This document shows, piece by piece, positions 6,317 through 52,061 of a DNA stretch of 64,000 nt (positions within the stretch are counted from its first letter, which is position 1; every line of letters starts with the position of its first letter). The notes under the pieces are model-generated. The model searched no databases. It saw only the letters and a list, made by a program, of their open reading frames with translations, and had not been told where the DNA came from. Origin of the DNA: a bacterium (lineage in GTDB: Bacteria; CLD3; SB21); contig WBUR01000024.1 of assembly GCA_008933615.1 (NCBI GenBank), positions 1-64,000 of the forward strand, written 5' to 3'. The position numbers and the translations under genes are program-made.

Positions 6317-6476
6317 ATTTTCGAAAAGGAACACGGATAACGCGGATTTAGCTGATTTGCTCGGATTTAAAAGGGAACTAATTCATCAAGATATTTCAGA
6401 TAAAATCATTAAGGCTTTCTATAAGGTATATAACGAACTTGGTTTTGGTTTCTTATTTACCAATGACAAAAAGTGA
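6309..6476 (+). pseudogene. Truncated GxxExxY-family gene remnant
   Basis: A 55-codon frame overlaps the murA stop. It reads through NTDNADLADLLGFKRELI and then HQDISDKIIKAFYKVYNELG, which is the N-terminal part of GxxExxY proteins (a PDDEXK-like family of about 125-130 residues). After GFGFL, where the family continues with EKVYENAL, this frame gives FTNDKK and stops, so about two thirds of the domain is missing. It lies between the arms of a palindromic element (6328-6519). The coding start itself overlaps the left arm. I treat it as a decayed gene. Confidence 0.75.
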
Positions 6477-6519
6477 ATCAATTCTGTCTAGATCCGTCCG
6501 ATCCGCGTCATCTGTGTCC
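6328..6519. repeat. Palindromic element carrying the GxxExxY remnant
   Basis: The left arm begins GGAACACGGATAACGCGG at 6328. The right arm (6491-6519) ends CCGCGTCATCTGTGTCC; its reverse complement closely matches the left arm. The first 22 bases of the left arm are identical to those of a second, gene-less copy at 36701. The interior holds the truncated GxxExxY frame. Confidence 0.75.
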
Positions 6520-6558
6520 TATTAATCAGCAGTTACAAATCTTAATCCTCGTACATTG

Positions 6559-7395
6559 ATGAATCCCACACATCATCACCCTGACTTCATCGTGGCGCGA
6601 AGGCCGATGATCGATATGATCGATGCCGGCGTTGTTTTTTATCGCGCATCGTATCAAACGGTTACTCAGATCGTTTTGACGTTCTACCTGCCGTTGTTTC
6701 TTATCAAATATTTATTTTTCCGATTTGACCTGATCCCGATTGAACGGGTGTTTAATTCGTTCGGCTTTTTTCAAACGGGTTCCTATACTTTGGAAAACGT
6801 GGCGCTCATGGTGCTGGACGGAAGCGTAAATTCGGTCACGGGCGGAGCCACCTGCTTTTTTCTATTTGAAAAAGCGAAAGGCCATGAGATGGGTGCGTCT
6901 TTGCTGATAAAAAAAATGGCTGGAAAAACAGGGCCGCTTTTATGGATAACGGCCATCACAACAATGATCACGCTAATCGGACTTGGATTCTGTTTTATTC
7001 CCGGCTTGTGGATTGGGATCATTTTTTTATTTTCGACGCAACTGGTGGTTATTGAAAACGTATCGTCTTTCGATGCAATTTGGAAACGCTCCCGTTATCT
7101 CGTGTTGAGCGAATGGTGGAGAGTACTGGTTTATTTTGCTCTGACCACGCTGCTGCTGTTTGTTCTCGGCTTGTCGCTCACGTTTTTGATTTCAGGCGTG
7201 TATCAGATTTTACTAGAACAGTTGAGTTGGCTCACGGGTTTGATTCCGGATCTGAAGATGATTGAAATAGCCGGAGGAGCCGTTGCATCGCTTCTCTTGA
7301 TTCCAATGCAGGTGATATTTATTACCATTTTATATTTTGACGTGCGTTCGCGAAAAGAAGGATTTGATCTGGAAATGATGCTGCAATCGATATGA
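6559..7395 (+). CDS. Multi-pass membrane protein (GPDPase membrane-domain-like)
   Basis: The protein is 278 residues with about five or six hydrophobic segments (near residues 35-55, 85-100, 130-165, 185-215 and 235-260) and an amphipathic C-terminus (FITILYFDVRSRKEGFDLEMML) typical of glycerophosphodiester phosphodiesterase membrane-domain/DUF975-like proteins. No catalytic motif is visible. Its stop overlaps the start of the DUF4129 gene by four bases (ATGA), and the downstream genes are DUF4129, DUF4350 and MoxR, so it belongs to that set. An in-frame TTG directly precedes the chosen ATG. Confidence 0.7.
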   Translation: MNPTHHHPDFIVARRPMIDMIDAGVVFYRASYQTVTQIVLTFYLPLFLIKYLFFRFDLIPIERVFNSFGFFQTGSYTLENVALMVLDGSVNSVTGGATCFFLFEKAKGHEMGASLLIKKMAGKTGPLLWITAITTMITLIGLGFCFIPGLWIGIIFLFSTQLVVIENVSSFDAIWKRSRYLVLSEWWRVLVYFALTTLLLFVLGLSLTFLISGVYQILLEQLSWLTGLIPDLKMIEIAGGAVASLLLIPMQVIFITILYFDVRSRKEGFDLEMMLQSI

Positions 7396-8576
7396 ATTCG
7401 CTTTTTAAAAAAATAAGCGAGACTTTCGTTGTCTTTATCGTTGGAGTGAACTCCCTCGTATTCGCCGCAGAGCCGGATGCCGTCACGCCTTCGCTTTTCG
7501 ATTCAAGCCTCATCAAAAACACGGCGATCACACCGGCCGATTACGAAGGGTTGCTCAGGTTTGTACTGGAACAAACAGCCGAACTCCGGCTGAATAATGA
7601 CGGCGAAGTCCGAGCGGGAATACAATCGAATTTTCAATCGCTTCGGCGGCAGATACCCGATTCATACGCATTCACCGTGTGGATCTCTTATGGCGATCCG
7701 GACAGCGTACGGGCTTTTGATACGACGGCGGTAACAAACAATAGTTGGCTCTTGAACGATCTGGATAAATTGAGCGGCGCACATTTGCAGGACAAGGGCG
7801 CTGAACAAATTCAGCATAACTTGGAATTAGCGTTGCGCTCGATTTCAACATTAAAAAGCTATATTCTGATTCGCGATACCGCAGACTATAAGAAACAATT
7901 GATGTCCATTCTCGAAAGGCCGGAATACAGGGAGAAAAAAAATAAAAATCTTTTGCTGGACGGGTTTAACTGGCTGATGGACCAACTCGCTTCCATCTTT
8001 AGCGGACTTTTTAAAAACAGCAGTTCACGTGAAACGCCGCAGGTCCCGGAGCCGCGCGATTATACCATGATCGGTCAAATGCTGGTTTATGCGGGTTACG
8101 TTATCGGCGCGATGACCTTATTGTGGCTGGCTGTGCATGTAATCCGGCATTTTCGGCAACGCAAAGAGAATTCTGCCGCTAAGAAAAAAAATTTCGAAAA
8201 CCTGATCGAAGCGGGGGAATCGATGGAGCCGGACGACCATCTCCGGCATGCGCATCGCTGCGCGTTTACAGGCGAATACCGGAAAGCGATTCGTCACCTG
8301 TTCTTATCGATAATCCTGCATCTCGATGCACAAGATCATTTTCGTTATCAAAAATTTCAAACCAACGGCGAGTATCTGACGGCCTTATTGAATGAGAGTC
8401 AGTTGTTCTGCAGGATCGAACTGCACGGACATCTGAAAAAGATCAGCGATATGTTTGAAAAAACATGGTACGGCATTGAGAACGCAACGGAAGAAGATTT
8501 CACCGCCTGCAATTCCTACTACCATCTTTGTTTACATGCGCTGCAGCAAAAACAAACCGTGACCAGTGGAGTATGA
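7392..8576 (+). CDS. DUF4129 domain membrane protein
   Basis: The 394-residue protein has a signal-like N-terminus (FVVFIVGVNSLVFA), a long extracytoplasmic region and one membrane helix near residues 225-255 (MLVYAGYVIGAMTLLWLAVHVI). A cytoplasmic C-terminal DUF4129 domain follows (HAHRCAFTGEYRKAIRHLFLSII through FEKTWYG). DUF4129 proteins are commonly encoded beside MoxR ATPases, transglutaminase-like and DUF58 proteins; their function is unclear. The start overlaps the previous stop and its stop overlaps the next start, indicating tight translational coupling. Confidence 0.8.
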   Translation: MNSLFKKISETFVVFIVGVNSLVFAAEPDAVTPSLFDSSLIKNTAITPADYEGLLRFVLEQTAELRLNNDGEVRAGIQSNFQSLRRQIPDSYAFTVWISYGDPDSVRAFDTTAVTNNSWLLNDLDKLSGAHLQDKGAEQIQHNLELALRSISTLKSYILIRDTADYKKQLMSILERPEYREKKNKNLLLDGFNWLMDQLASIFSGLFKNSSSRETPQVPEPRDYTMIGQMLVYAGYVIGAMTLLWLAVHVIRHFRQRKENSAAKKKNFENLIEAGESMEPDDHLRHAHRCAFTGEYRKAIRHLFLSIILHLDAQDHFRYQKFQTNGEYLTALLNESQLFCRIELHGHLKKISDMFEKTWYGIENATEEDFTACNSYYHLCLHALQQKQTVTSGV

Positions 8577-43153: not shown

Positions 43154-43393
43154 AATGAACTCCTTCTATTTAGAAAATCAGAATTGTCATACAATAAACC
43201 AAACCACATTAACAAAAAAAAATGTTCTACGCAACGATTTTTTGACCCAAAATCAATATTCTGAATTTTTCAACTCTTACTTTATACAATAGCGTCAGTA
43301 AGTCGAGATGGGCAGTTACTAATCTGCTATATTCCAATTCGGATAAAAGCCATGGTATTTTCCATAGATAAATAGGAAGAATAAAATTTTTAC

Positions 43394-43422
43394 TTGACAA
43401 TAAGAAAAGGAAATAATATTAT
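43394..43422 (+). promoter_or_regulatory. Consensus sigma70-type promoter of the bacteriocin locus
   Basis: TTGACA at 43394-43399, a 17-base spacer and TATTAT at 43417-43422. The start codon of the exporter lies 71 bases downstream. Confidence 0.65.
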
Positions 43423-43423
43423 T

Positions 43424-43446
43424 AAACCACGTAGCGGTTTCTTTTT
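43424..43446 (+). promoter_or_regulatory. Possible attenuator hairpin in the exporter leader
   Basis: AAACC(ACGTAGC)GGTTT followed by CTTTTT resembles a short terminator directly after the promoter. The stem is only five base pairs, so an effect on transcription is speculative. Confidence 0.3.
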
Positions 43447-43493
43447 AGCCATAATATCTCAAATACTTTTTGCCTATTGTTTAGAATTGAGAA

Positions 43494-45683
43494 ATGAAAA
43501 AACTTTTTCGACAAAAGTATCCCGTCGTCAGACAATATGATCAAACTGATTGTGGGCCGGCTGCTCTTTTGAGTGTTCTAAGGTTCTATCGAGGTGACTC
43601 TAGTCTTGTTCGTTTAAGAAGACTGTGCAAGACAACGTCCGTAGGTACGTCAATGGCTAACATAGTGGAAGCCGCAAACGTGTTGGGTTTTGATGCCCGT
43701 GCTGTCCGAGGGGAGTTTGAAGAACTTTGTGATGAAATCATGCCGTGCATTGCTCATATTGTTACTTCAGAAGGGCTGTCACATTTTGCTGTAGTTTATA
43801 CTGCAACCCCAGATATAGTTTTAGTGGGTGATCCAGGACGGGGACTGCTAAGACTATCTTCCGAAGAATTTATGAATTTATGGAAATCAAAAACGGCCGT
43901 TTTGTTTAAACCGGGTTCTAAATTGCATTATGATAAGCCCCCCAGCTGGCTTTACTGGATTAGTCAATATGCGAAAAAATATGAAACGTGGATATACCAA
44001 TCGACTTTTCTCGGAGTTCTTTATACCGTTTTGGGTCTTGCCAATGCCATTTTCATTCAGTTGATTGTGGACAAAATTATTCCTACTGGTCAAACCGAAA
44101 AAATAGTATTGCTTACCCTTGCCTTATTTTTAGTATTAGTTCTGCGTTCTGGTTTTGGCTATTTCAGGCAGCGCTTTTTGGTTGTCGCCAACAAGAGGCT
44201 GAGCAATGATATTTGTGCCGATTTTTTACGCCATCTATTCAGATTGCCAAAATCTTTTTTTGATTCGAGAAAAACAGGCGATATTCTCACAAGATTCGCC
44301 GATACCCATCGGGTTCGGCAACTTATTCTCACACTGTCAACTGTGACAACTATAGACATCCTCATTGTATGCGGCTCATTGTCTTTCTTATTTTTTATTA
44401 CCCCTGGAATTGCATTGTCAATAGCTCTTTTGCTTCTCATATATTCATACTTATTGTTTACCAGAGCTAAGAGCTTGACGGATCAACAAAGATCAGTTAT
44501 GAAGAATAATGCGGAGGTTGAGTCCTCCTATATTGACAGTATTGAGGGTATTGATCATCTGATAAGTTTTAATTCTCAAGAAGTTTTCTCAGAGTTAAAC
44601 ATTGTCTTATTTAGGCGGCATCAGGATGGTATAGAGAGATTCGGTATGACCCAAGCGAGGTTGTCACTTTTTGCTGAATTTTTTCTTGGATTGGTTATGT
44701 TGTCAACGCTGGGAGTTGGCTCTTCGTGGGTATTAGGTGGCAGTCTATCATTAGGTCAATTGATAGCCGCCTATAGTCTTCTTGCGCTACTCATCCCAAG
44801 TGTCAATCGATTAGTTGATGTTAAGGTTGCCACGGCAGGTGCTTCAGTTGCATTCCATCGTATGATGGACATATTACTGATCGAACCCGAAAAACTTGAC
44901 GTAGGAGGATGTACGTGTATAGACAAATCAGTTTCCATTGACAAAGGGTCTTTTGGTTGGTCTGGCCAAGGGTTGCTTTTTAAAAACATAAGCCTTACAA
45001 TTTGCAAGGGCAAGTTATCTTCATTGTGGGGGCCAAGTGGTTCCGGTAAAAGCACTATAGTCAATATCTTGCAGCGAGTGTTGGACTTGTCCTCTGGTAC
45101 ACTCTTAGTCGATAACGTCCATGCGAATTTATTGTCTATTCGAGAATACAGAAAGAAAATATGCACCGTTCCTCAATCGATCAAAATCTTCAACGCTTCA
45201 CTCCTTGACAACATTCTTCTTGGACGACCATTTTCTGGAATTGAAAAAGTTACGGAGTGGATAAACGAAATTGGTTTCAGTTTTTTCCCTTCCAGATTTG
45301 AAAATGGTTTACTTACACTAATTGGAAAAGATGGTCAGCAGCTATCGGGAGGAGAGAAACAGCTTCTTGGTTTTTTGCGCGCTCTTTGGAACAGACCTGA
45401 GGTTTTGGTTATCGATGAAGCCCTAACCGGAATTGATATGTTTATTGAAAACGAATTATGGAAGTTTTTGAAAAGGTATTCAGAAACAAATGCGGTATTA
45501 ATTGTTTCGCATGACTTACGAACAATATTAAAAACCGATTACGCTTTTATACTCAATTCCGGCACCATTGTCAAAAGCGGACCACCAGTAGGACTTTTTG
45601 ATGCAGATCAGTTGAGAACAACGTATGGAGTAACTATGAATTTTGACGTCATGAATAATAATCCTCTCGTCGTGAAGGCATAG
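43494..45683 (+). CDS. Peptidase-containing ABC transporter (C39 family bacteriocin exporter)
   Basis: The 729-residue protein has three modules. The N-terminal C39 peptidase carries Gln14, Cys20 (VRQYDQTDCGPAALLS), His97 (LSHFAVVY) and Asp113 (VGDPGRG). A six-helix ABC membrane domain spans about 155-450. The ATPase has Walker A GPSGSGKST, signature LSGGEKQ, Walker B VLVIDEAL and the SHD switch. Such proteins cut peptide precursors after a Gly-Gly leader and export the core. The precursor at 47325 is the obvious substrate. All catalytic residues are present. It is the first gene of the island after the consensus promoter. Confidence 0.94.
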   Translation: MKKLFRQKYPVVRQYDQTDCGPAALLSVLRFYRGDSSLVRLRRLCKTTSVGTSMANIVEAANVLGFDARAVRGEFEELCDEIMPCIAHIVTSEGLSHFAVVYTATPDIVLVGDPGRGLLRLSSEEFMNLWKSKTAVLFKPGSKLHYDKPPSWLYWISQYAKKYETWIYQSTFLGVLYTVLGLANAIFIQLIVDKIIPTGQTEKIVLLTLALFLVLVLRSGFGYFRQRFLVVANKRLSNDICADFLRHLFRLPKSFFDSRKTGDILTRFADTHRVRQLILTLSTVTTIDILIVCGSLSFLFFITPGIALSIALLLLIYSYLLFTRAKSLTDQQRSVMKNNAEVESSYIDSIEGIDHLISFNSQEVFSELNIVLFRRHQDGIERFGMTQARLSLFAEFFLGLVMLSTLGVGSSWVLGGSLSLGQLIAAYSLLALLIPSVNRLVDVKVATAGASVAFHRMMDILLIEPEKLDVGGCTCIDKSVSIDKGSFGWSGQGLLFKNISLTICKGKLSSLWGPSGSGKSTIVNILQRVLDLSSGTLLVDNVHANLLSIREYRKKICTVPQSIKIFNASLLDNILLGRPFSGIEKVTEWINEIGFSFFPSRFENGLLTLIGKDGQQLSGGEKQLLGFLRALWNRPEVLVIDEALTGIDMFIENELWKFLKRYSETNAVLIVSHDLRTILKTDYAFILNSGTIVKSGPPVGLFDADQLRTTYGVTMNFDVMNNNPLVVKA

Positions 45684-45685
45684 CA

Positions 45686-46348
45686 GTGGTACAGAGTGTT
45701 TCAATAGACAATGCGCCTGTTTTTAAAACTTGGCACATCTATATTGCCTTGGTTGTCGTGAATATGTTGTTAATTTACGCAGACAGCCAGTTGGTTATGA
45801 CGAGAGACGTATACTACAACATACTTTCAGACCAAATGGAATATTCTCGGATCGACCAAGTCTACGAGGCAGTAAAAGGTTATTCCATATGGGGATATTT
45901 GTTCGTCCCGCTGATATTGTGGCTCAGAATTGCCTTTGTGGTTTTGATGACACAGTTTCCATTCATTCTTCGAGATATCGATATCCCATTTAAGCAAGTA
46001 TTTAGAGCAGGATGCTTTGGATTGCTTTTCCTCGCAGTTGGATCGATGTTGAGGATCATCTATCTTTCTTCTTTGCCTAGCGATCAAGTAGATAAAACGA
46101 TATTGACTTTTGTTCCATTTTCCATTGCACAGTTTCTGGATGCAGAAGCTTATGGAACGACAGCATTTGCGGTCTTAAGTAGCTTCAACATTTTTGAGTT
46201 ATTGTGGATTTTAATGATTTCAAAAGGTGTAGCTTCGAGTGGAAAGGTGAACAAAGGCGATGCTATATTGGTAACGAGTTTCATTTGGGTAATAATATTG
46301 GTATTTCAATGGGGATTAGGAATTTCTTTAGAAAAGATCAATGGATAG
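45686..46348 (+). CDS. Unknown membrane protein of the bacteriocin locus
   Basis: The 220-residue protein is not in a family I recognise. About five hydrophobic helices are visible (near 17-35, 70-95, 105-128, 140-175, 195-213). The start is GTG two bases after the exporter stop, so it is translated in the same operon. It has a single Cys and no enzyme motif. Its position suggests immunity, export or maturation; the sequence does not decide. Confidence 0.6.
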   Translation: MVQSVSIDNAPVFKTWHIYIALVVVNMLLIYADSQLVMTRDVYYNILSDQMEYSRIDQVYEAVKGYSIWGYLFVPLILWLRIAFVVLMTQFPFILRDIDIPFKQVFRAGCFGLLFLAVGSMLRIIYLSSLPSDQVDKTILTFVPFSIAQFLDAEAYGTTAFAVLSSFNIFELLWILMISKGVASSGKVNKGDAILVTSFIWVIILVFQWGLGISLEKING

Positions 46349-46740
46349 CAAGGCTCACCATCTCCTTTGTTTTCATGGCCTCTGCCATAATGAAGTTGGC
46401 AGATTTTGAGGATTCCATTGATTTGATTCAGGAGATGTTTGATTTGCAACATCATAATGCACGCTTGTTGTTGGCCATTAGTATTTTATTTGAAATCATG
46501 ATGGCTATGCTTGTTGTAGTAAGACATTTCCAGAGTTCAGAAACTTACTTGATTCTAATCTTGGCAATAAGTTTATTTATTGTTATTAATGGATGGCAAA
46601 TTTATACACAGCAAGAAAACTGCGGTTGCTTTGGCACGATGGTTCAAATGAGTCCAGTCGTGACGTTAGCAAAAAATTGTTTTCTCCTTTTCCTAGCAGT
46701 AAGCATCAGAAAAAAAATGTCCGGGAGGAATAGTGCTTAA
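46309..46740 (+). CDS. MauE/DoxX-like membrane protein
   Basis: The 143-residue protein has four membrane helices and the ENCGCFGT motif (Cys105, Cys107) typical of MauE/DoxX-family proteins. MauE with MauD helps form disulfides in methylamine dehydrogenase. The chosen ATG at 46309 overlaps the preceding gene by 40 bases and gives a short basic N-terminus before helix 1 (LTISFVFMASAIMKLADF). The thioredoxin-like gene follows with an eight-base overlap. Together they look like a thiol-oxidation pair; that function is inferred. Confidence 0.75.
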   Translation: MGIRNFFRKDQWIARLTISFVFMASAIMKLADFEDSIDLIQEMFDLQHHNARLLLAISILFEIMMAMLVVVRHFQSSETYLILILAISLFIVINGWQIYTQQENCGCFGTMVQMSPVVTLAKNCFLLFLAVSIRKKMSGRNSA

Positions 46741-47236
46741 GAATTTATTAACATTATCCGTTGGTTGTGTTTTCGCCATCTTGTTGATATGGCTGATAGT
46801 CAGATTGCTAACTTCCGAAGTGATGGCTGTCGGGTCGGAGCTTCCGAACATGAAGTACGTGAACGAAATGGGCCAGTTGGATTCACTGAAAAAGGATGAA
46901 AAGGTCAATACTATTGTGTGCCTTTTTAGGAGCGATTGTGAGCATTGCGAATATCAGCTCGACGTTTTTAACAAGTGTATTGATTCACTAAAGAACACTC
47001 GCATGATTCTCATGACTGGTGAATCGGATGAGGTTCTTGCCCGAATTAGAGCTAAATACGGAAATTTATCACAGGTAAACAAGGTGAGTTGGGGTAGTGT
47101 TCGTTTAGAAGAATTTATAAAACTTTTTGGACGAAAAAACACGCCAGCCATTTTTGTATTTAACTTAAAGTCAAAATTAGTTGCTAAGTTTCTAGGAGAA
47201 GTGAAAATCGTAACATTGATCAAATATTGTCAATAA
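46733..47236 (+). CDS. Membrane-anchored thioredoxin-like protein
   Basis: The 167-residue protein has an N-terminal anchor (VGCVFAILLIWLIVRLL) and a periplasmic thioredoxin/TlpA-like fold. The active site is Cys69-Glu-His-Cys72 in LFRSDCEHCEYQ, with a cis-Pro in KNTPAIFVF. The start is GTG at 46733, overlapping the MauE-like gene. It should exchange disulfides on the outer face of the membrane, matching the four-cysteine peptide encoded next. Confidence 0.82.
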   Translation: MLKNLLTLSVGCVFAILLIWLIVRLLTSEVMAVGSELPNMKYVNEMGQLDSLKKDEKVNTIVCLFRSDCEHCEYQLDVFNKCIDSLKNTRMILMTGESDEVLARIRAKYGNLSQVNKVSWGSVRLEEFIKLFGRKNTPAIFVFNLKSKLVAKFLGEVKIVTLIKYCQ

Positions 47237-47240
47237 AAAT

Positions 47241-47258
47241 TTGTGTTCCGGAACACAA
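47241..47258. promoter_or_regulatory. Perfect 18-bp palindrome upstream of the precursor gene
   Basis: TTGTGTTCCGGAACACAA reads the same on both strands. It lies just after the thioredoxin stop and 66 bases before the precursor ATG. There is no T-run, so an operator is more likely than a terminator. The regulator is unknown. Confidence 0.5.
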
Positions 47259-47324
47259 GGCGCAGTTTAATTAAAGCTCTTACTGCGGGGGCGTATTTTT
47301 AGTACTTTAGTTGGAGGATGAAAA

Positions 47325-47555
47325 ATGAAAGAGTTATCGATTGAAGAAATGGAGCAAATTTCAGGCGGCGAAACCAATATCAATTGGGATGGAGTAGCGT
47401 GTGTTGGATTTGGTGTTGGTTTGAGCGCTGCGGCAGGTGCAGTTGCTGGACCTTGGGGTGCAGCCCTTATGGGCTTTGCATATGGCTCCCTAGCTTATTG
47501 CCCTCCAGTTACTTATGACAATACCAGATGTGCTACAATCGGCGGTTATTGTTAA
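47325..47555 (+). CDS. Double-glycine bacteriocin precursor peptide
   Basis: The 76-residue peptide has the leader MKELSIEEMEQISGG, a class II double-glycine leader with the usual LS..EM..I.GG spacing. C39 cleavage after Gly15 would give a 61-residue core. Cysteines are at 26, 59, 69 and 76. Between the first two lies a glycine/alanine-rich hydrophobic stretch (VGFGVGLSAAAGAVAGPWG onward) with GxxxG spacing, as in pore-forming bacteriocins. GGAGG lies before the ATG. The four cysteines suit the MauE/thioredoxin pair upstream. The sequence is not one I recognise. Confidence 0.85.
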   Translation: MKELSIEEMEQISGGETNINWDGVACVGFGVGLSAAAGAVAGPWGAALMGFAYGSLAYCPPVTYDNTRCATIGGYC

Positions 47556-47576
47556 GATACATTCAATTCCATGTGA

Positions 47577-47606
47577 CTAGGGAAGGCAAAATTGGCTTGC
47601 CCTAGC
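47577..47606. other. Hairpin after the precursor gene
   Basis: CTAGGG pairs with CCCTAG, and an alternative GGCAA/TTGCC stem is possible. There is no T-run. It may stabilise the precursor mRNA end or limit readthrough to the ABC genes. Confidence 0.45.
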
Positions 47607-47621
47607 CATTATATATGATCT

Positions 47622-49013
47622 ATGAATTTTTTTATATATTTGATATCTAGAAAAATTGTGGCTTCGAATAGGTCCATAAGTAGGATAATAATAAACGTTT
47701 TCCTATTTGTGATATTTTTTGTTGTAGCTACATTTCTATACAAATTCTTTGCTCAACTTAATGACATTCAGTTGCAACTTACAAATGCGAAAGATTTCTT
47801 TTTTTTATTGTCATTGTTATCTTATTTTCCATTTTTCAAATTTGGACTTGATGATCATAGGGTACTTTTTTTATTTCCCATCAATAGGACATGGATTGCT
47901 ATATTGTCCATTATTTCGGAGTTTTTCAAACTTAGAATTTTAATCCAATCAATCTTTTCGCTATTTTTACTGTTAACCTATTCTGAAGCTATTCATACAC
48001 AACCACAGTCTTTTCTTTTGTTTTCGATATTTCTCTTCGTCCTGACTACATTTTTTATTGTTACCAAGCTGTCCATGTCTCGAGGTCAGATGAAGTGGTC
48101 TGGAATTTTCAATATCGTTTTGATTTGCGGTGTCGTGTTCCTGAATTATGTGATTCTGTCATATTCTGTTATTGTTTTATACATCATATTAAGCCTTTGG
48201 ATCCTTATTAATGTGTTTATTTTGAGAAAACAAATTAGAGACCAACGCATCATTCGTGATCAGTCAGCAAACATTTTGCTGATAAGCAGTTTGTTTTGGA
48301 GGATTTTTAAAAAGAACATGTTAGTTAGCAAGGAACTGCTCCTTCTTTTAAGAAGTGTTCGTGGATTTGAACTAGTTGTTCATAGTACGATTCTTTTCAT
48401 GTTGATTTTTGCAATTTCTTTTTATTTTCCGAAGCTCACACCCGTACATTGGTTTTTTGGATTTTTGTCTACAGGAATAATCATGGCGGAATATTTTCAA
48501 TATTGCTTTTCATGGGATTACGACGCGCTGGGAAAAGTTCGTCTATTACCAATCTCAAACATGGTTATTGTGTATTCAAAATTAGTTACGGCACGTCTCA
48601 TATACGTCTATATTAATTGCATGGCAATCCCTTTTAGTATCGGACACTACAACTTAATAGCAACTATTACGGTTGTGATTTTTAATATCACAATTCTGCC
48701 TCATGTTAACTTGTTATTTTCTTACGTTTCATATCAAAAGGTGTGGGTCAATAAGAGTACCTACAACCTTAAATACTATAAAAGACCGATTAAACTTCTT
48801 ATTGTTTTATTTTTTCTTCTTTTTACAGAGTTTCTGTTTCTTATTTTTTCAACTATATCTTCAGAATTTCAATTGTGGGGCTGCTTGTTTGTTGGTGGAA
48901 TTGCGATTCTAGTCTTGATTGGGGACAACATCCTTGTGAGATGGCACTCTAGTTATTATCAATTGTGGCTTAAGAACAATGAAAGGTGGAGCAATGCCGA
49001 AATTAGATTCTGA
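47622..49013 (+). CDS. Multi-pass membrane protein, probable ABC permease of the bacteriocin locus
   Basis: The 463-residue protein is very hydrophobic, with about ten to twelve predicted helices and no enzyme motif. It lies immediately before an ABC ATPase gene that overlaps its end, the usual arrangement for a two-gene ABC-2-type transporter. In bacteriocin loci such pairs often remove the peptide from the membrane (LanFEG-like immunity). I do not recognise the exact family. Confidence 0.65.
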   Translation: MNFFIYLISRKIVASNRSISRIIINVFLFVIFFVVATFLYKFFAQLNDIQLQLTNAKDFFFLLSLLSYFPFFKFGLDDHRVLFLFPINRTWIAILSIISEFFKLRILIQSIFSLFLLLTYSEAIHTQPQSFLLFSIFLFVLTTFFIVTKLSMSRGQMKWSGIFNIVLICGVVFLNYVILSYSVIVLYIILSLWILINVFILRKQIRDQRIIRDQSANILLISSLFWRIFKKNMLVSKELLLLLRSVRGFELVVHSTILFMLIFAISFYFPKLTPVHWFFGFLSTGIIMAEYFQYCFSWDYDALGKVRLLPISNMVIVYSKLVTARLIYVYINCMAIPFSIGHYNLIATITVVIFNITILPHVNLLFSYVSYQKVWVNKSTYNLKYYKRPIKLLIVLFFLLFTEFLFLIFSTISSEFQLWGCLFVGGIAILVLIGDNILVRWHSSYYQLWLKNNERWSNAEIRF

Positions 49014-49761
49014 TGTTTTAGTGATAAATGACCTTGTTGTTGACAGAGGTGCCGTATTTGAGTTACAAATTGCGAGTCTAAAACTAAAAGGCGGTGAAAT
49101 TCTCGGTGTTGTGGGCAACAATGGTGCTGGCAAAACCACACTTCTCTTGTCCATTCTCGAATTTCTTGACCGGGAGAAAGGTGAATTGAGGTTGTTTGAC
49201 AAAACTTGGAATGAAGATGAGATTTTCATTAAAAGGAATCTCGGCGCTTACTTGGATACATCATTTCTCATTGATTATATGCAAGTGGAAGAATACTATA
49301 GTTTTATCGCATCGGTTTATGGATTGGATATGATTGCTACAAAAACCCGAATTTCTGAATTTCTAGATTCACTACCTATCGAGTTTCTGTCAAAGCAACT
49401 CATCCGCGAATTATCGGCAGGAAATTTTACTAAGGTGGGTTTGATTGGTTCGCTCATTCACAAACCGAAGCTTATATTATGGGACGAGCCATTTGCAAAT
49501 CTGGATCCTTATTCGAAAAATCGATTGATGGAACTGGTACTGGAGGTCAAAGCTGAAGAGAATACTTCTTTTATCATTAGTTCTCATAACATCGAAGAAA
49601 TCTACAGCATTGCCGATAGATTTCTCGTTCTTGATAAGGGCAGAACTTTGGCAGCAGAAGCAAAAGACGTTCTTTCAAGAGATGATATTAACAATCTTCT
49701 GGGGCTCAAGAGGAAGGAATATTTATCTACTACATCATTGAACCTAACTAAGAAGTTATGA
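48994..49761 (+). CDS. ABC transporter ATP-binding protein
   Basis: The 255-residue ATPase has Walker A VVGNNGAGKTTL, a divergent signature LSAGN in place of LSGGQ, Walker B LILWDEPFANLD and the H-loop SSHNIEEI. It resembles the CcmA/NatA/LanF group that pairs with ABC-2 permeases. The start at 48994 follows AGGTGGAG and overlaps the permease by 20 bases. It is the last gene of the island. Confidence 0.9.
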   Translation: MPKLDSDVLVINDLVVDRGAVFELQIASLKLKGGEILGVVGNNGAGKTTLLLSILEFLDREKGELRLFDKTWNEDEIFIKRNLGAYLDTSFLIDYMQVEEYYSFIASVYGLDMIATKTRISEFLDSLPIEFLSKQLIRELSAGNFTKVGLIGSLIHKPKLILWDEPFANLDPYSKNRLMELVLEVKAEENTSFIISSHNIEEIYSIADRFLVLDKGRTLAAEAKDVLSRDDINNLLGLKRKEYLSTTSLNLTKKL

Positions 49762-49855
49762 ACTGCGCCATTGTAGATTCTGACTCACTTACACGAGTTT
49801 CGTGTCCACTATTTGAGATGCTTCAAATTTGTCCAGAAATCACCACGGTTCAAGT

Positions 49856-50290
49856 CTATGCCAAATCAGCTCTATCACTCTCACCCATGACTTTAATAAC
49901 GACCCGTTTTTTTCGCTGTCCGTCGAATTCGGCATAATAAATCTGCTGCCAAGGGCCGAAGTCCAGCTGGCCTTTGGTGATCGGAACGATCACTTCATGA
50001 TGGATGATCAAGCTTTTTAGATGAGCGTCGCCGTTATCTTCGCCCGTGCGGTGATGCAGATAGTTCGGATTAAACGGGGCAAGTTTTTCAAGCCAGGCAT
50101 CGATATCCTGTATCAAACCCGATTCAGCGTCATTGACATATACGCCCGCGGTTATGTGCATCGCGGAAACGAGCGCCATACCTTCTTCAATTCCCGATTT
50201 ATGTACGGCCGCTTCGACGTCTTGCGTGATGTTGATATAGTCGCGCCTGTTCTTGGTATTAAACCATAGGTATTCTGTAAACGACTTCAT
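49856..50290 (-). CDS. YjbQ family protein (UPF0047, thiamine-phosphate synthase-like)
   Basis: The 144-residue protein has the UPF0047 motifs [34 protein letters not shown] and [13 protein letters not shown]. The conserved His/Glu/Asp set is intact. YjbQ has weak thiamine-phosphate synthase activity in E. coli; the true role is unclear. It is the last gene of the minus-strand run that begins at dnaJ. Confidence 0.92.
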
Positions 50291-50319: not shown

Positions 50320-51096
50320 CTACTCGATCATCATTCCGATGCGTGACCACCGTATGTCGAAGTTATCGTCAGAAGCGGTGGACCAGTACACCATGAGCGC
50401 TTTTCCTATGACATACTCGCGCGGAACAAATCCCCATTGACGGCTGTCGTAGCTGCGATCGCGGTTGTCGCCCATTGCGAAGAGTGTACCTTCAGGAACC
50501 TTTACCGGGCCGTAGTTATCACGGCTGCCTGCGTTTTTTGGAAATACGGTTTCATACCCTTTGTCGCGCGGAATGATGTCGGGGTCTTCATATTTTAATC
50601 CCGGCGGATCAACGATGTCGCTGAGCGGCGCGCCGTCAACATAGACAATTTTGTTTTTGATCTCAACCGTCTGCCCTGCAACGGCGACGCACCGTTTGAT
50701 GTAATCGACCAGAGGATCGGGCGGAAATTTGAAAACGATTACATCGCCGGAACGCGGTTCACGTAATGCGGGCAATTGATACTGCGGAATTTTTATTTCC
50801 GTAAACGGGATTTTGTCGGGTGTTTTCGCTCCGTACACAAATTTATTAACCAACAGGAGGTCGCCAACTAGCAGCGTGTTTTCCATGGATCCGGTTGGAA
50901 TTTTAAATGCCTGGAGAAAAAAAATCCGTATGATATATGCAAAAAGAAGGGCGTACAAGGCAATCTGAAAGAGCTCAAGCGTTTTGCTTTTTTCTTTTTT
51001 TGAAGCCTCTGCGATGGAAGGTTTGTCCGGCGGGGAAGTTTCTTCCGAATTCATAGGCAAAACCAGGCTGCTATCAGGCAGTTCGTTAATAGACAT
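50320..51096 (-). CDS. lepB: Signal peptidase I (copy 1)
   Basis: The 258-residue protein has one membrane helix (residues 43-62) and the catalytic pair Ser70 (IPTGSMENTL) and Lys134 (DYIKRCVAVAGQ), with box E GDNRDRSYDSRQWGFVP. It cleaves signal peptides on the outer face of the inner membrane. It lies five bases after a second, larger lepB. The N-terminus has a Pro/Ser-rich cytoplasmic tail. Confidence 0.94.
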   Translation of the reverse strand: MSINELPDSSLVLPMNSEETSPPDKPSIAEASKKEKSKTLELFQIALYALLFAYIIRIFFLQAFKIPTGSMENTLLVGDLLLVNKFVYGAKTPDKIPFTEIKIPQYQLPALREPRSGDVIVFKFPPDPLVDYIKRCVAVAGQTVEIKNKIVYVDGAPLSDIVDPPGLKYEDPDIIPRDKGYETVFPKNAGSRDNYGPVKVPEGTLFAMGDNRDRSYDSRQWGFVPREYVIGKALMVYWSTASDDNFDIRWSRIGMMIE

Positions 51097-51101
51097 AAAA
51101 T

Positions 51102-52061
51102 TTATCTGATGATTGTTCCAATACGTTTCCAGTTCACTTTGGAAAGATTAAGCGTACTGAATAATTTAAGAATATAGTTGGTCTGTTTGGCGGCTTCTAC
51201 ATTGGACCAGTAAATGAATAGTCCCTCGCCGGCGACATGATCGCGCGGAACCGGGCCCCAAAAACGGCTGTCCAAACTATTGTCGCGATTATCGCCCATC
51301 ATAAAATAATAATCCTGGCCGACTTCATACGAGTCCGCTTTGATTCCGTCCACATAGTATCCGTCGGCGCGCCGTTCAAATTGTTTATGGTCGCGCAGCG
51401 CGAGGTATTTAATAAAGTCGTCGTTATTTGGAGAGATCGTGATCAAATCTCCCTTCGCTGGAATACGCAGAGGCCCGAAGTTCTCGCCCGTTCCCATTGT
51501 TTTTGGAAATACGTCGCTCGTGGCGCCGGAATTTGGATCGTAAGGGTAATAATGGATTCCAGGAAAATCAAAACTTTCAGAAAACAATTTCCCGTCCACA
51601 TATAATTCTTTATTTTTTATTTCCAGTGTTTGTCCTGCCGCCGCGACGCATCGTTTTATATAATCTAACCCCAGCTGGCCTTCCATATTGGCCAGTTCCG
51701 GATGAGGAAACCGAAACACAACCACGTCTCCTTGTTCAGGTTCCTTGAACGATGGAAACCGGTAACGCGGCAGCTGAATGCCCGTGAAAGGAATGTTTTC
51801 CGGCGTCTGAGCGCCGTAGACGCACTTATTTACAAATATAAAATCGCCTACCAGCAGAGTGCTGACCATGGAACTCGTTGGAATAGTGAATGCCTGCAGA
51901 AAGAATGTTTGCACAAAATAGAAAACACCCAACGCCCACGCAAACGATTTTACGGATTCCGTCGTTTTTTCTTTGAAGGTTTGTTCTTTTTTTATTTCCT
52001 GCTGTTGAGCACGGAGCGCTGCGGTTTTAGAGTTCTTGTCTTTTAACTGGTCTTTTATCAT
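51102..52061 (-). CDS. lepB: Signal peptidase I (copy 2, larger)
   Basis: The 319-residue protein has catalytic Ser64 (IPTSSMVSTL) and Lys136 (DYIKRCVAAAGQ), and box E GDNRDNSLDSRFWGPVP. Compared with copy 1 it has a larger beta domain around residues 160-260, so the two may prefer different substrates. The N-terminus is charged (KDQLKDKNSKTAALRAQQQE). The tandem copies are clearly related and probably arose by duplication. Confidence 0.94.
   Translation of the reverse strand: MIKDQLKDKNSKTAALRAQQQEIKKEQTFKEKTTESVKSFAWALGVFYFVQTFFLQAFTIPTSSMVSTLLVGDFIFVNKCVYGAQTPENIPFTGIQLPRYRFPSFKEPEQGDVVVFRFPHPELANMEGQLGLDYIKRCVAAAGQTLEIKNKELYVDGKLFSESFDFPGIHYYPYDPNSGATSDVFPKTMGTGENFGPLRIPAKGDLITISPNNDDFIKYLALRDHKQFERRADGYYVDGIKADSYEVGQDYYFMMGDNRDNSLDSRFWGPVPRDHVAGEGLFIYWSNVEAAKQTNYILKLFSTLNLSKVNWKRIGTIIR

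What the first reader, a model, noticed from the sequence alone, without database searches (positions are those of the whole stretch)
43394..49761. Compact bacteriocin locus with its own thiol-oxidation pair
Seen in the sequence: consensus promoter, C39 exporter, unknown membrane protein, MauE-like protein, CxxC thioredoxin, double-glycine precursor with four Cys, then ABC permease plus ATPase, all on one strand with overlaps. Known: C39 exporters cut Gly-Gly leaders, and MauE/MauD-type pairs help form disulfides. Inference: the locus makes, oxidises, exports and protects against a disulfide-bonded class II-like peptide in an FCB-type bacterium. The region is visibly AT-richer than its flanks, which fits recent gain. 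No lanthipeptide or sactipeptide enzyme is present.
Basis: partly seen in the sequence, partly recalled or inferred. Interest (0 to 1): 0.88.

Follow-up and report, generated by a model that had tools for sequence, protein, structure and literature searches.

The report
Disulfide peptide-toxin island, bacteroidetocin kin
A 6.7-kb gene island, absent from the same spot in a close relative, encodes a small exported peptide with four cysteines plus its own cutter-exporter, a thiol-oxidation pair and a probable self-protection pump, and it belongs to a family of bacteroidetocin-like loci found here in several largely uncultured phyla beyond Bacteroidota.

Summary
In detail: seven co-directional genes at 43494-49761 (C39 exporter, membrane protein 'memB', MauE, CxxC thioredoxin, 76-aa Gly-Gly precursor with four core Cys, ABC permease, ATPase). 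They form a 6.7-kb AT-rich insert (37.6% vs 45.3% GC) between sodA and yjbQ, which lie about 80 bp apart in a same-genus genome. The exporter/memB/(MauE)/thioredoxin/precursor set recurs in Ignavibacteriota, KSB1 and, in part, Calditrichota and Gemmatimonadota. All 29 precursors found beside a family thioredoxin have 2 or 4 core Cys, nearly all flanking a hydrophobic stretch; related exporters without memB mostly sit beside 0- or 1-Cys peptides. The exporter tree places this group as sister to Bacteroidota loci with the gene set published for bacteroidetocins. Best reading: a diverged, non-Bacteroidota branch of bacteroidetocin-type class II bacteriocin loci with two additions, a MauE partner for the thioredoxin and a variable ABC pair that probably gives self-protection. 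The host matches neither DsbB nor VKOR. Antibacterial activity, disulfides, cleavage and electron-flow direction are inferred, not shown. New variant of a known kind.

The parts
43177..49880 (.). whole inserted island between sodA and yjbQ
   Evidence: Same-genus G002 aligns to window 43176 and resumes at 49881, with about 80 bp between; GC 37.6% vs 45.3%; the last ~25 bp at the right end include the 3' end of yjbQ, which has diverged
43394..43422 (+). sigma-70-like promoter match TTGACA-17-TATTAT
   Evidence: 11 of 12 consensus positions, but such sites are not enriched over shuffles
43494..45683 (+). C39 peptidase/ABC exporter, 729 aa; Cys20, His97, Asp113 invariant in the family alignment
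   Evidence: Pfam, alignment A2
45686..46348 (+). memB, multi-pass membrane protein of the bacteroidetocin 5-TM slot, distantly YknW/Yip1-like
   Evidence: helical model pLDDT 90.6
46309..46740 (+). MauE, 143 aa
   Evidence: PF07291 E 3.5e-16; helical model pLDDT 87.2
46621..46629 (+). MauE CGC motif (in NCGCFGT)
   Evidence: both Cys invariant in 13 aligned copies
46733..47236 (+). membrane-anchored thioredoxin-like protein, 167 aa
   Evidence: marginal Pfam hits; both Cys of CxxC conserved in 10 aligned copies
46937..46948 (+). thioredoxin CEHC motif
   Evidence: sequence, alignment
47325..47369 (+). precursor leader MKELSIEEMEQISGG with predicted cut after Gly15
   Evidence: TIGR01847 bacteriocin signature above cut-off; leader conserved in relatives
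47370..47552 (+). 61-aa core peptide, Cys 11, 44, 54, 61 around a Gly/Ala-rich hydrophobic stretch
47622..49013 (+). membrane protein, probable ABC-2-type permease, 463 aa
   Evidence: no Pfam hit; overlaps the ATPase gene; position shared with permeases of related loci
48979..49761 (+). ABC ATPase, 260 aa
   Evidence: PF00005 E 2.1e-22

Best explanation
The island makes, oxidises, exports and guards against a disulfide-bonded class II bacteriocin-like peptide of the bacteroidetocin-type lineage. The C39 domain cuts the 15-aa leader after Gly-Gly while the ABC part moves the 61-aa core across the inner membrane. In the periplasm the membrane-anchored CEHC thioredoxin oxidises the core, most likely pairing Cys11 with Cys44 around the hydrophobic stretch and Cys54 with Cys61 in the tail, and MauE re-oxidises the thioredoxin through its CGC pair. 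memB is needed for production or export rather than immunity, as reported for the bacteroidetocin TM protein. The ABC permease/ATPase protects the producer. Shown here: gene content, cross-phylum conservation, the Cys pattern, the insertion, no DsbB/VKOR match in the host. Inferred: cleavage, disulfides and their pairing, electron direction, MauE-Trx partnership, immunity role, killing.
For: The set recurs with the precursor in several phyla. 34 of 35 cores in memB loci have 2 or 4 Cys, 33 of 35 with one near each end, against 2 of 30 and 1 of 30 in memB-negative loci; all 29 beside a detected thioredoxin are even. The exporter tree unites all memB loci (support 100) and makes the window's branch sister to the Bacteroidota branch. 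Published bacteroidetocin loci have the same four kinds of gene, give disulfide-type gel shifts and need the TM and thiol genes for full activity (PMC6671954). MauE is genetically linked to disulfide-rich methylamine dehydrogenase and has been noted in candidate Cys-rich RiPP loci (PMC7794033). The host matches neither VKOR nor DsbB. ABC pairs lie beside the precursors in many loci.
Against: No authentic bacteroidetocin A/B sequence was compared, so kinship rests on gene layout and the tree. The core shares no clear sequence with the 42-aa class IIa-like bacteroidetocins. Several thioredoxin-bearing loci lack MauE, so MauE is not essential to the scheme. No activity data. No HlyD/TolC partner in the island, so how the peptide leaves a diderm cell is unexplained. 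Memb-negative controls are mostly related Bacilli loci, so the Cys contrast is not a set of independent points.
Confidence: 0.8

Rival explanations
1. The thioredoxin/MauE pair works in the reducing or isomerising direction: it keeps exported cysteines reduced or reshuffles wrong disulfides, while oxygen or small molecules do the oxidising.
For: TlpA/MauD-like thioredoxins can be reductive (general knowledge); the sequence alone does not set direction; MauE fold search gave no significant match.
Against: The peptides carry even Cys numbers in paired positions; the host has no DsbB or VKOR match to make wrong disulfides that would need repair; the best, non-significant, fold match of MauE is VKOR-like.
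Confidence: 0.2
2. The peptide is a secreted signal or a development factor rather than a bacteriocin.
For: No killing has been tested in this branch; C39 exporters also process pheromones (general knowledge).
Against: No regulator or sensor kinase lies in the island; the core is long and hydrophobic with bacteriocin-type weak family hits; relatives in Bacteroidales are published toxins by layout (PMC6671954).
Confidence: 0.15
3. The ABC permease/ATPase is a second exporter for the mature peptide, not an immunity pump.
For: No HlyD/TolC partner is encoded in the island; bacteroidetocin loci manage without an immunity gene (PMC6671954).
Against: Such pairs lie beside the precursor in the window, L051, L054, L055, L057, L069, L072, L073 and L074, yet the window permease finds no sequence match among the others', as expected of peptide-specific protection; Bacteroidota-branch loci read here mostly lack the pair and still have the exporter.
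Confidence: 0.3

Closest known systems
Bacteroidetocin loci (proposed class IIf; Coyne et al. 2019, PMC6671954)
   Same: C39 exporter, unknown multi-TM protein, thiol oxidoreductase, small Gly-Gly peptide with 15-aa leader and paired Cys; no HlyD; on acquired DNA
   Different: Outside Bacteroidota; MauE added; ABC permease/ATPase pair added; gene order differs; core is longer, hydrophobic and Gly-rich, not class IIa-like
Class II bacteriocin loci with a thiol-disulfide oxidoreductase (PedC of pediocin PA-1, BlpG of thermophilin; PMC4919988)
   Same: A CxxC thioredoxin-fold protein helps a disulfide-bearing Gly-Gly bacteriocin
   Different: Gram-positive; no MauE or memB described there in the passages read
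Streptomyces candidate RiPP families with mauE/mauD (decRiPPter, PMC7794033)
   Same: MauE-type gene proposed to act on a Cys-rich precursor
   Different: Actinobacterial; the passage read does not describe a C39/memB cassette
YknWXYZ (PMC4887032)
   Same: memB has a weak NCBIfam hit to the YknW family; YknWXYZ protects against the SDP peptide toxin
   Different: Hit is far below the family cut-off; the YknXYZ partners are absent from the island

Membership tests
Bacteroidetocin-type biosynthetic locus | C39-domain ABC exporter | tested here: met
   PF03412 and ABC domains; exporter in one clade with Bacteroidota loci, support 100
Bacteroidetocin-type biosynthetic locus | unknown multi-TM protein of the same family | tested here: met
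   memB model built from window and KSB1 copies hits Bacteroidales TM proteins beside thioredoxin and exporter, E 1e-26 to 1e-19; authentic bacteroidetocin A/B genes not on hand
Bacteroidetocin-type biosynthetic locus | thiol oxidoreductase with CxxC | tested here: met
Bacteroidetocin-type biosynthetic locus | small Gly-Gly peptide, 15-16-aa leader, at least two Cys | tested here: met
   15-aa leader, four Cys
Bacteroidetocin proper (peptide) | sequence similarity to bacteroidetocin A/B, 42-53-aa mature peptide | tested here: inconclusive
   Core is 61 aa; A/B sequences are not printed in the text read, so no alignment was made
Class IIa bacteriocin | YGNGV motif | tested here: not met
   absent from the core
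Lanthipeptide or sactipeptide cluster | LanB/LanC/LanM or radical-SAM enzyme | tested here: not met
   none among the island genes in Pfam or NCBIfam scans
ColV-type class II microcin system | HlyD-type adaptor encoded with the C39 exporter | tested here: not met
   none in the island; HlyD_3 matches lie on other contigs
MauE family | PF07291 above cut-off | tested here: met
   60.1 bits, cut-off 27
Bacteroidetocin-type biosynthetic locus | antibacterial activity of the peptide | not testable with these tools
   needs expression and bioassay

The most novel reading that the evidence does not exclude
MauE acts as a dedicated membrane oxidase, a functional stand-in for DsbB/VKOR, that drives disulfide formation in one secreted peptide in bacteria without those general systems, and has been recruited into bacteroidetocin-type loci of several uncultured phyla.
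Probability: 0.45. Interest if true: 0.72.

Novelty: new variant of a known kind. Interest (0 to 1): 0.52.

Why it matters
It extends bacteroidetocin-type biosynthesis from Bacteroidota to Ignavibacteriota, KSB1, Calditrichota, Gemmatimonadota and an unnamed phylum, gives a source of many new peptides with a clear cysteine rule, and offers a small, clonable setting in which to ask what MauE does, which one source still calls speculative (PMC7794033). I found no paper in the held library tying MauE to this kind of locus or reporting such loci in these phyla, but the searches were few and cover open-access text only.

Tried and rejected
The memB alignment had no stretch conserved enough for a collection scan, so the exporter was used. 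C39 hits on Phocaeicola/Bacteroides plasmids looked like possible bacteroidetocin loci, but pBACSA02 carries HlyD and TolC partners and none of the three had a thioredoxin or memB hit. memB has no significant PDB fold match, so its YknW likeness was not pressed. The permeases of the different loci are not one recognisable family. A two-peptide system was considered: only one Gly-Gly precursor in the island and no second homologue in the genome, though some relatives have two. No direct repeat of 9 bp or more was found between the island ends in the stretches compared. The window organism could not be named.

Full report
Observation. Seven genes run on the + strand from 43494 to 49761: C39 exporter, membrane protein (memB), MauE, CxxC thioredoxin, Gly-Gly precursor, ABC permease and ATPase. 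MauE is best started at ATG 46309. The precursor has a 15-aa leader, MKELSIEEMEQISGG, and a 61-aa core with Cys at 11, 44, 54 and 61. The same leader-plus-even-Cys pattern turns up in 8 of 1000 shuffled islands. The promoter match is real, but such matches are no more common than in shuffles.

Insertion. In G002, a same-genus genome, flanking DNA (about 86-92% identical) runs up to window 43176 and resumes at 49881, with about 80 bp between. memB is absent from the other eight held genomes of the phylum. GC is 37.6% inside and 45.3% in the rest of the window. In G005 the sodA-yjbQ gap holds two unrelated genes instead.

Conservation. Strong memB relatives (26-40% identity) appear in 11 of 82 genomes of G053's phylum, and where the contigs continue they sit with the exporter, a thioredoxin and usually a Gly-Gly peptide; two further hits are weak and lie in other settings. 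A scan of one genome per species (85,462) with the exporter alignment gave 62 loci. The set, with or without MauE, recurs in records named Ignavibacteria/Melioribacter, KSB1, Calditrichaeota (contig cut off early) and Gemmatimonadetes (thioredoxin and peptides upstream, or no thioredoxin found), and in another order in Flavobacterium and Prevotellaceae. Both Cys of the MauE NCGCFGT motif are invariant in 13 aligned copies; both Cys of the thioredoxin CxxC are kept in 10.

Cysteine rule. In memB-positive loci 34 of 35 cores have 2 or 4 Cys and 33 of 35 have one near each end; in memB-negative loci the counts are 2 of 30 and 1 of 30. All 29 beside a detected thioredoxin are even. The exception, L070, has no thioredoxin hit, a fragmentary memB hit and one Cys. 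The loci are not independent, the controls are mostly Bacilli, and five regex hits that were clearly not precursors were dropped by hand, so the p value (6e-15) is only a guide. Even Cys also holds in loci without MauE, so the rule speaks for the thioredoxin more than for MauE.

Kinship. Bacteroidetocin loci consist of a 5-TM protein, a small 4-Cys peptide with 15-aa leader, a thiol oxidoreductase and a C39 exporter. Deleting the TM or thiol gene weakens activity, neither gives immunity, and producers are self-sensitive (PMC6671954). Bacteroidales loci with that layout were found with the Prevotellaceae memB. One, L162, has memB next to a 4-Cys peptide with Lys after Gly-Gly, as reported for bacteroidetocins A and B, but the rest of that locus looks broken. 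In the exporter tree all memB loci fall in one group (support 100), split into a Bacteroidota branch (100) and a branch with the window (99); the window groups with MauE-bearing, mostly Ignavibacteriota loci at 91. This was a quick tree without bootstrap.

Mechanism. The host genome (99% complete) matches neither VKOR nor DsbB, so a dedicated oxidant makes sense. MauE models as a helical bundle with good confidence; its best PDB match is VKOR-like but not significant. memB models confidently and matches nothing in the PDB. ABC permease/ATPase pairs lie beside precursors in many loci, yet the window permease finds no sequence match among the others', as expected if protection is peptide-specific. 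Cleavage, disulfides, electron direction, immunity and killing remain inference. How the peptide crosses the outer membrane without a HlyD/TolC partner in the island is open, as it is for the published bacteroidetocin loci.

Verdict. A new variant of the bacteroidetocin-type locus, outside Bacteroidota, with MauE and an ABC pair added.

Noticed in passing
L061 12767-12934 and L103 6615-7034: Ignavibacteriota cassettes with MauE and thioredoxin whose precursors are not Gly-rich (aromatic, acidic cores with 2 or 4 Cys) and which lack the ABC pair: perhaps a different product made by the same machinery.
   Followed up: partly
L142 2811-8892 (Flammeovirga pectinis plasmid): memB-thioredoxin-C39 exporter-peptide set followed by a GLPGLI protein, a LanC-like protein and a glycosyltransferase.
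   Followed up: no
L131 (G005) 6344-8334: The sodA-yjbQ gap holds an FAD-type oxidoreductase-like gene and an aldo/keto reductase-like gene in this relative: the site has taken other cargo or lost ancestral genes in the window's genus.
   Followed up: partly
window 50320-52061, - strand: Two signal-peptidase-like (LepB-type by eye) genes in tandem just beyond the island.
   Followed up: no
G000:C22:26782-27162 (L002): The only other C39 peptidase match in the genome lies in a 1478-aa open frame, not a typical exporter length.
   Followed up: no
L060 9678-10142 and L059 8748-9215: Similar IS200/REP-type transposase-like ORFs near two KSB1 cassettes (identified by eye).
   Followed up: no
L086-L108 (Bacilli and relatives): C39 loci with pairs of small Gly-Gly peptides each carrying a single Cys close to the C-terminus, a consistent pattern that may mean inter-peptide disulfides or other chemistry.
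   Followed up: no
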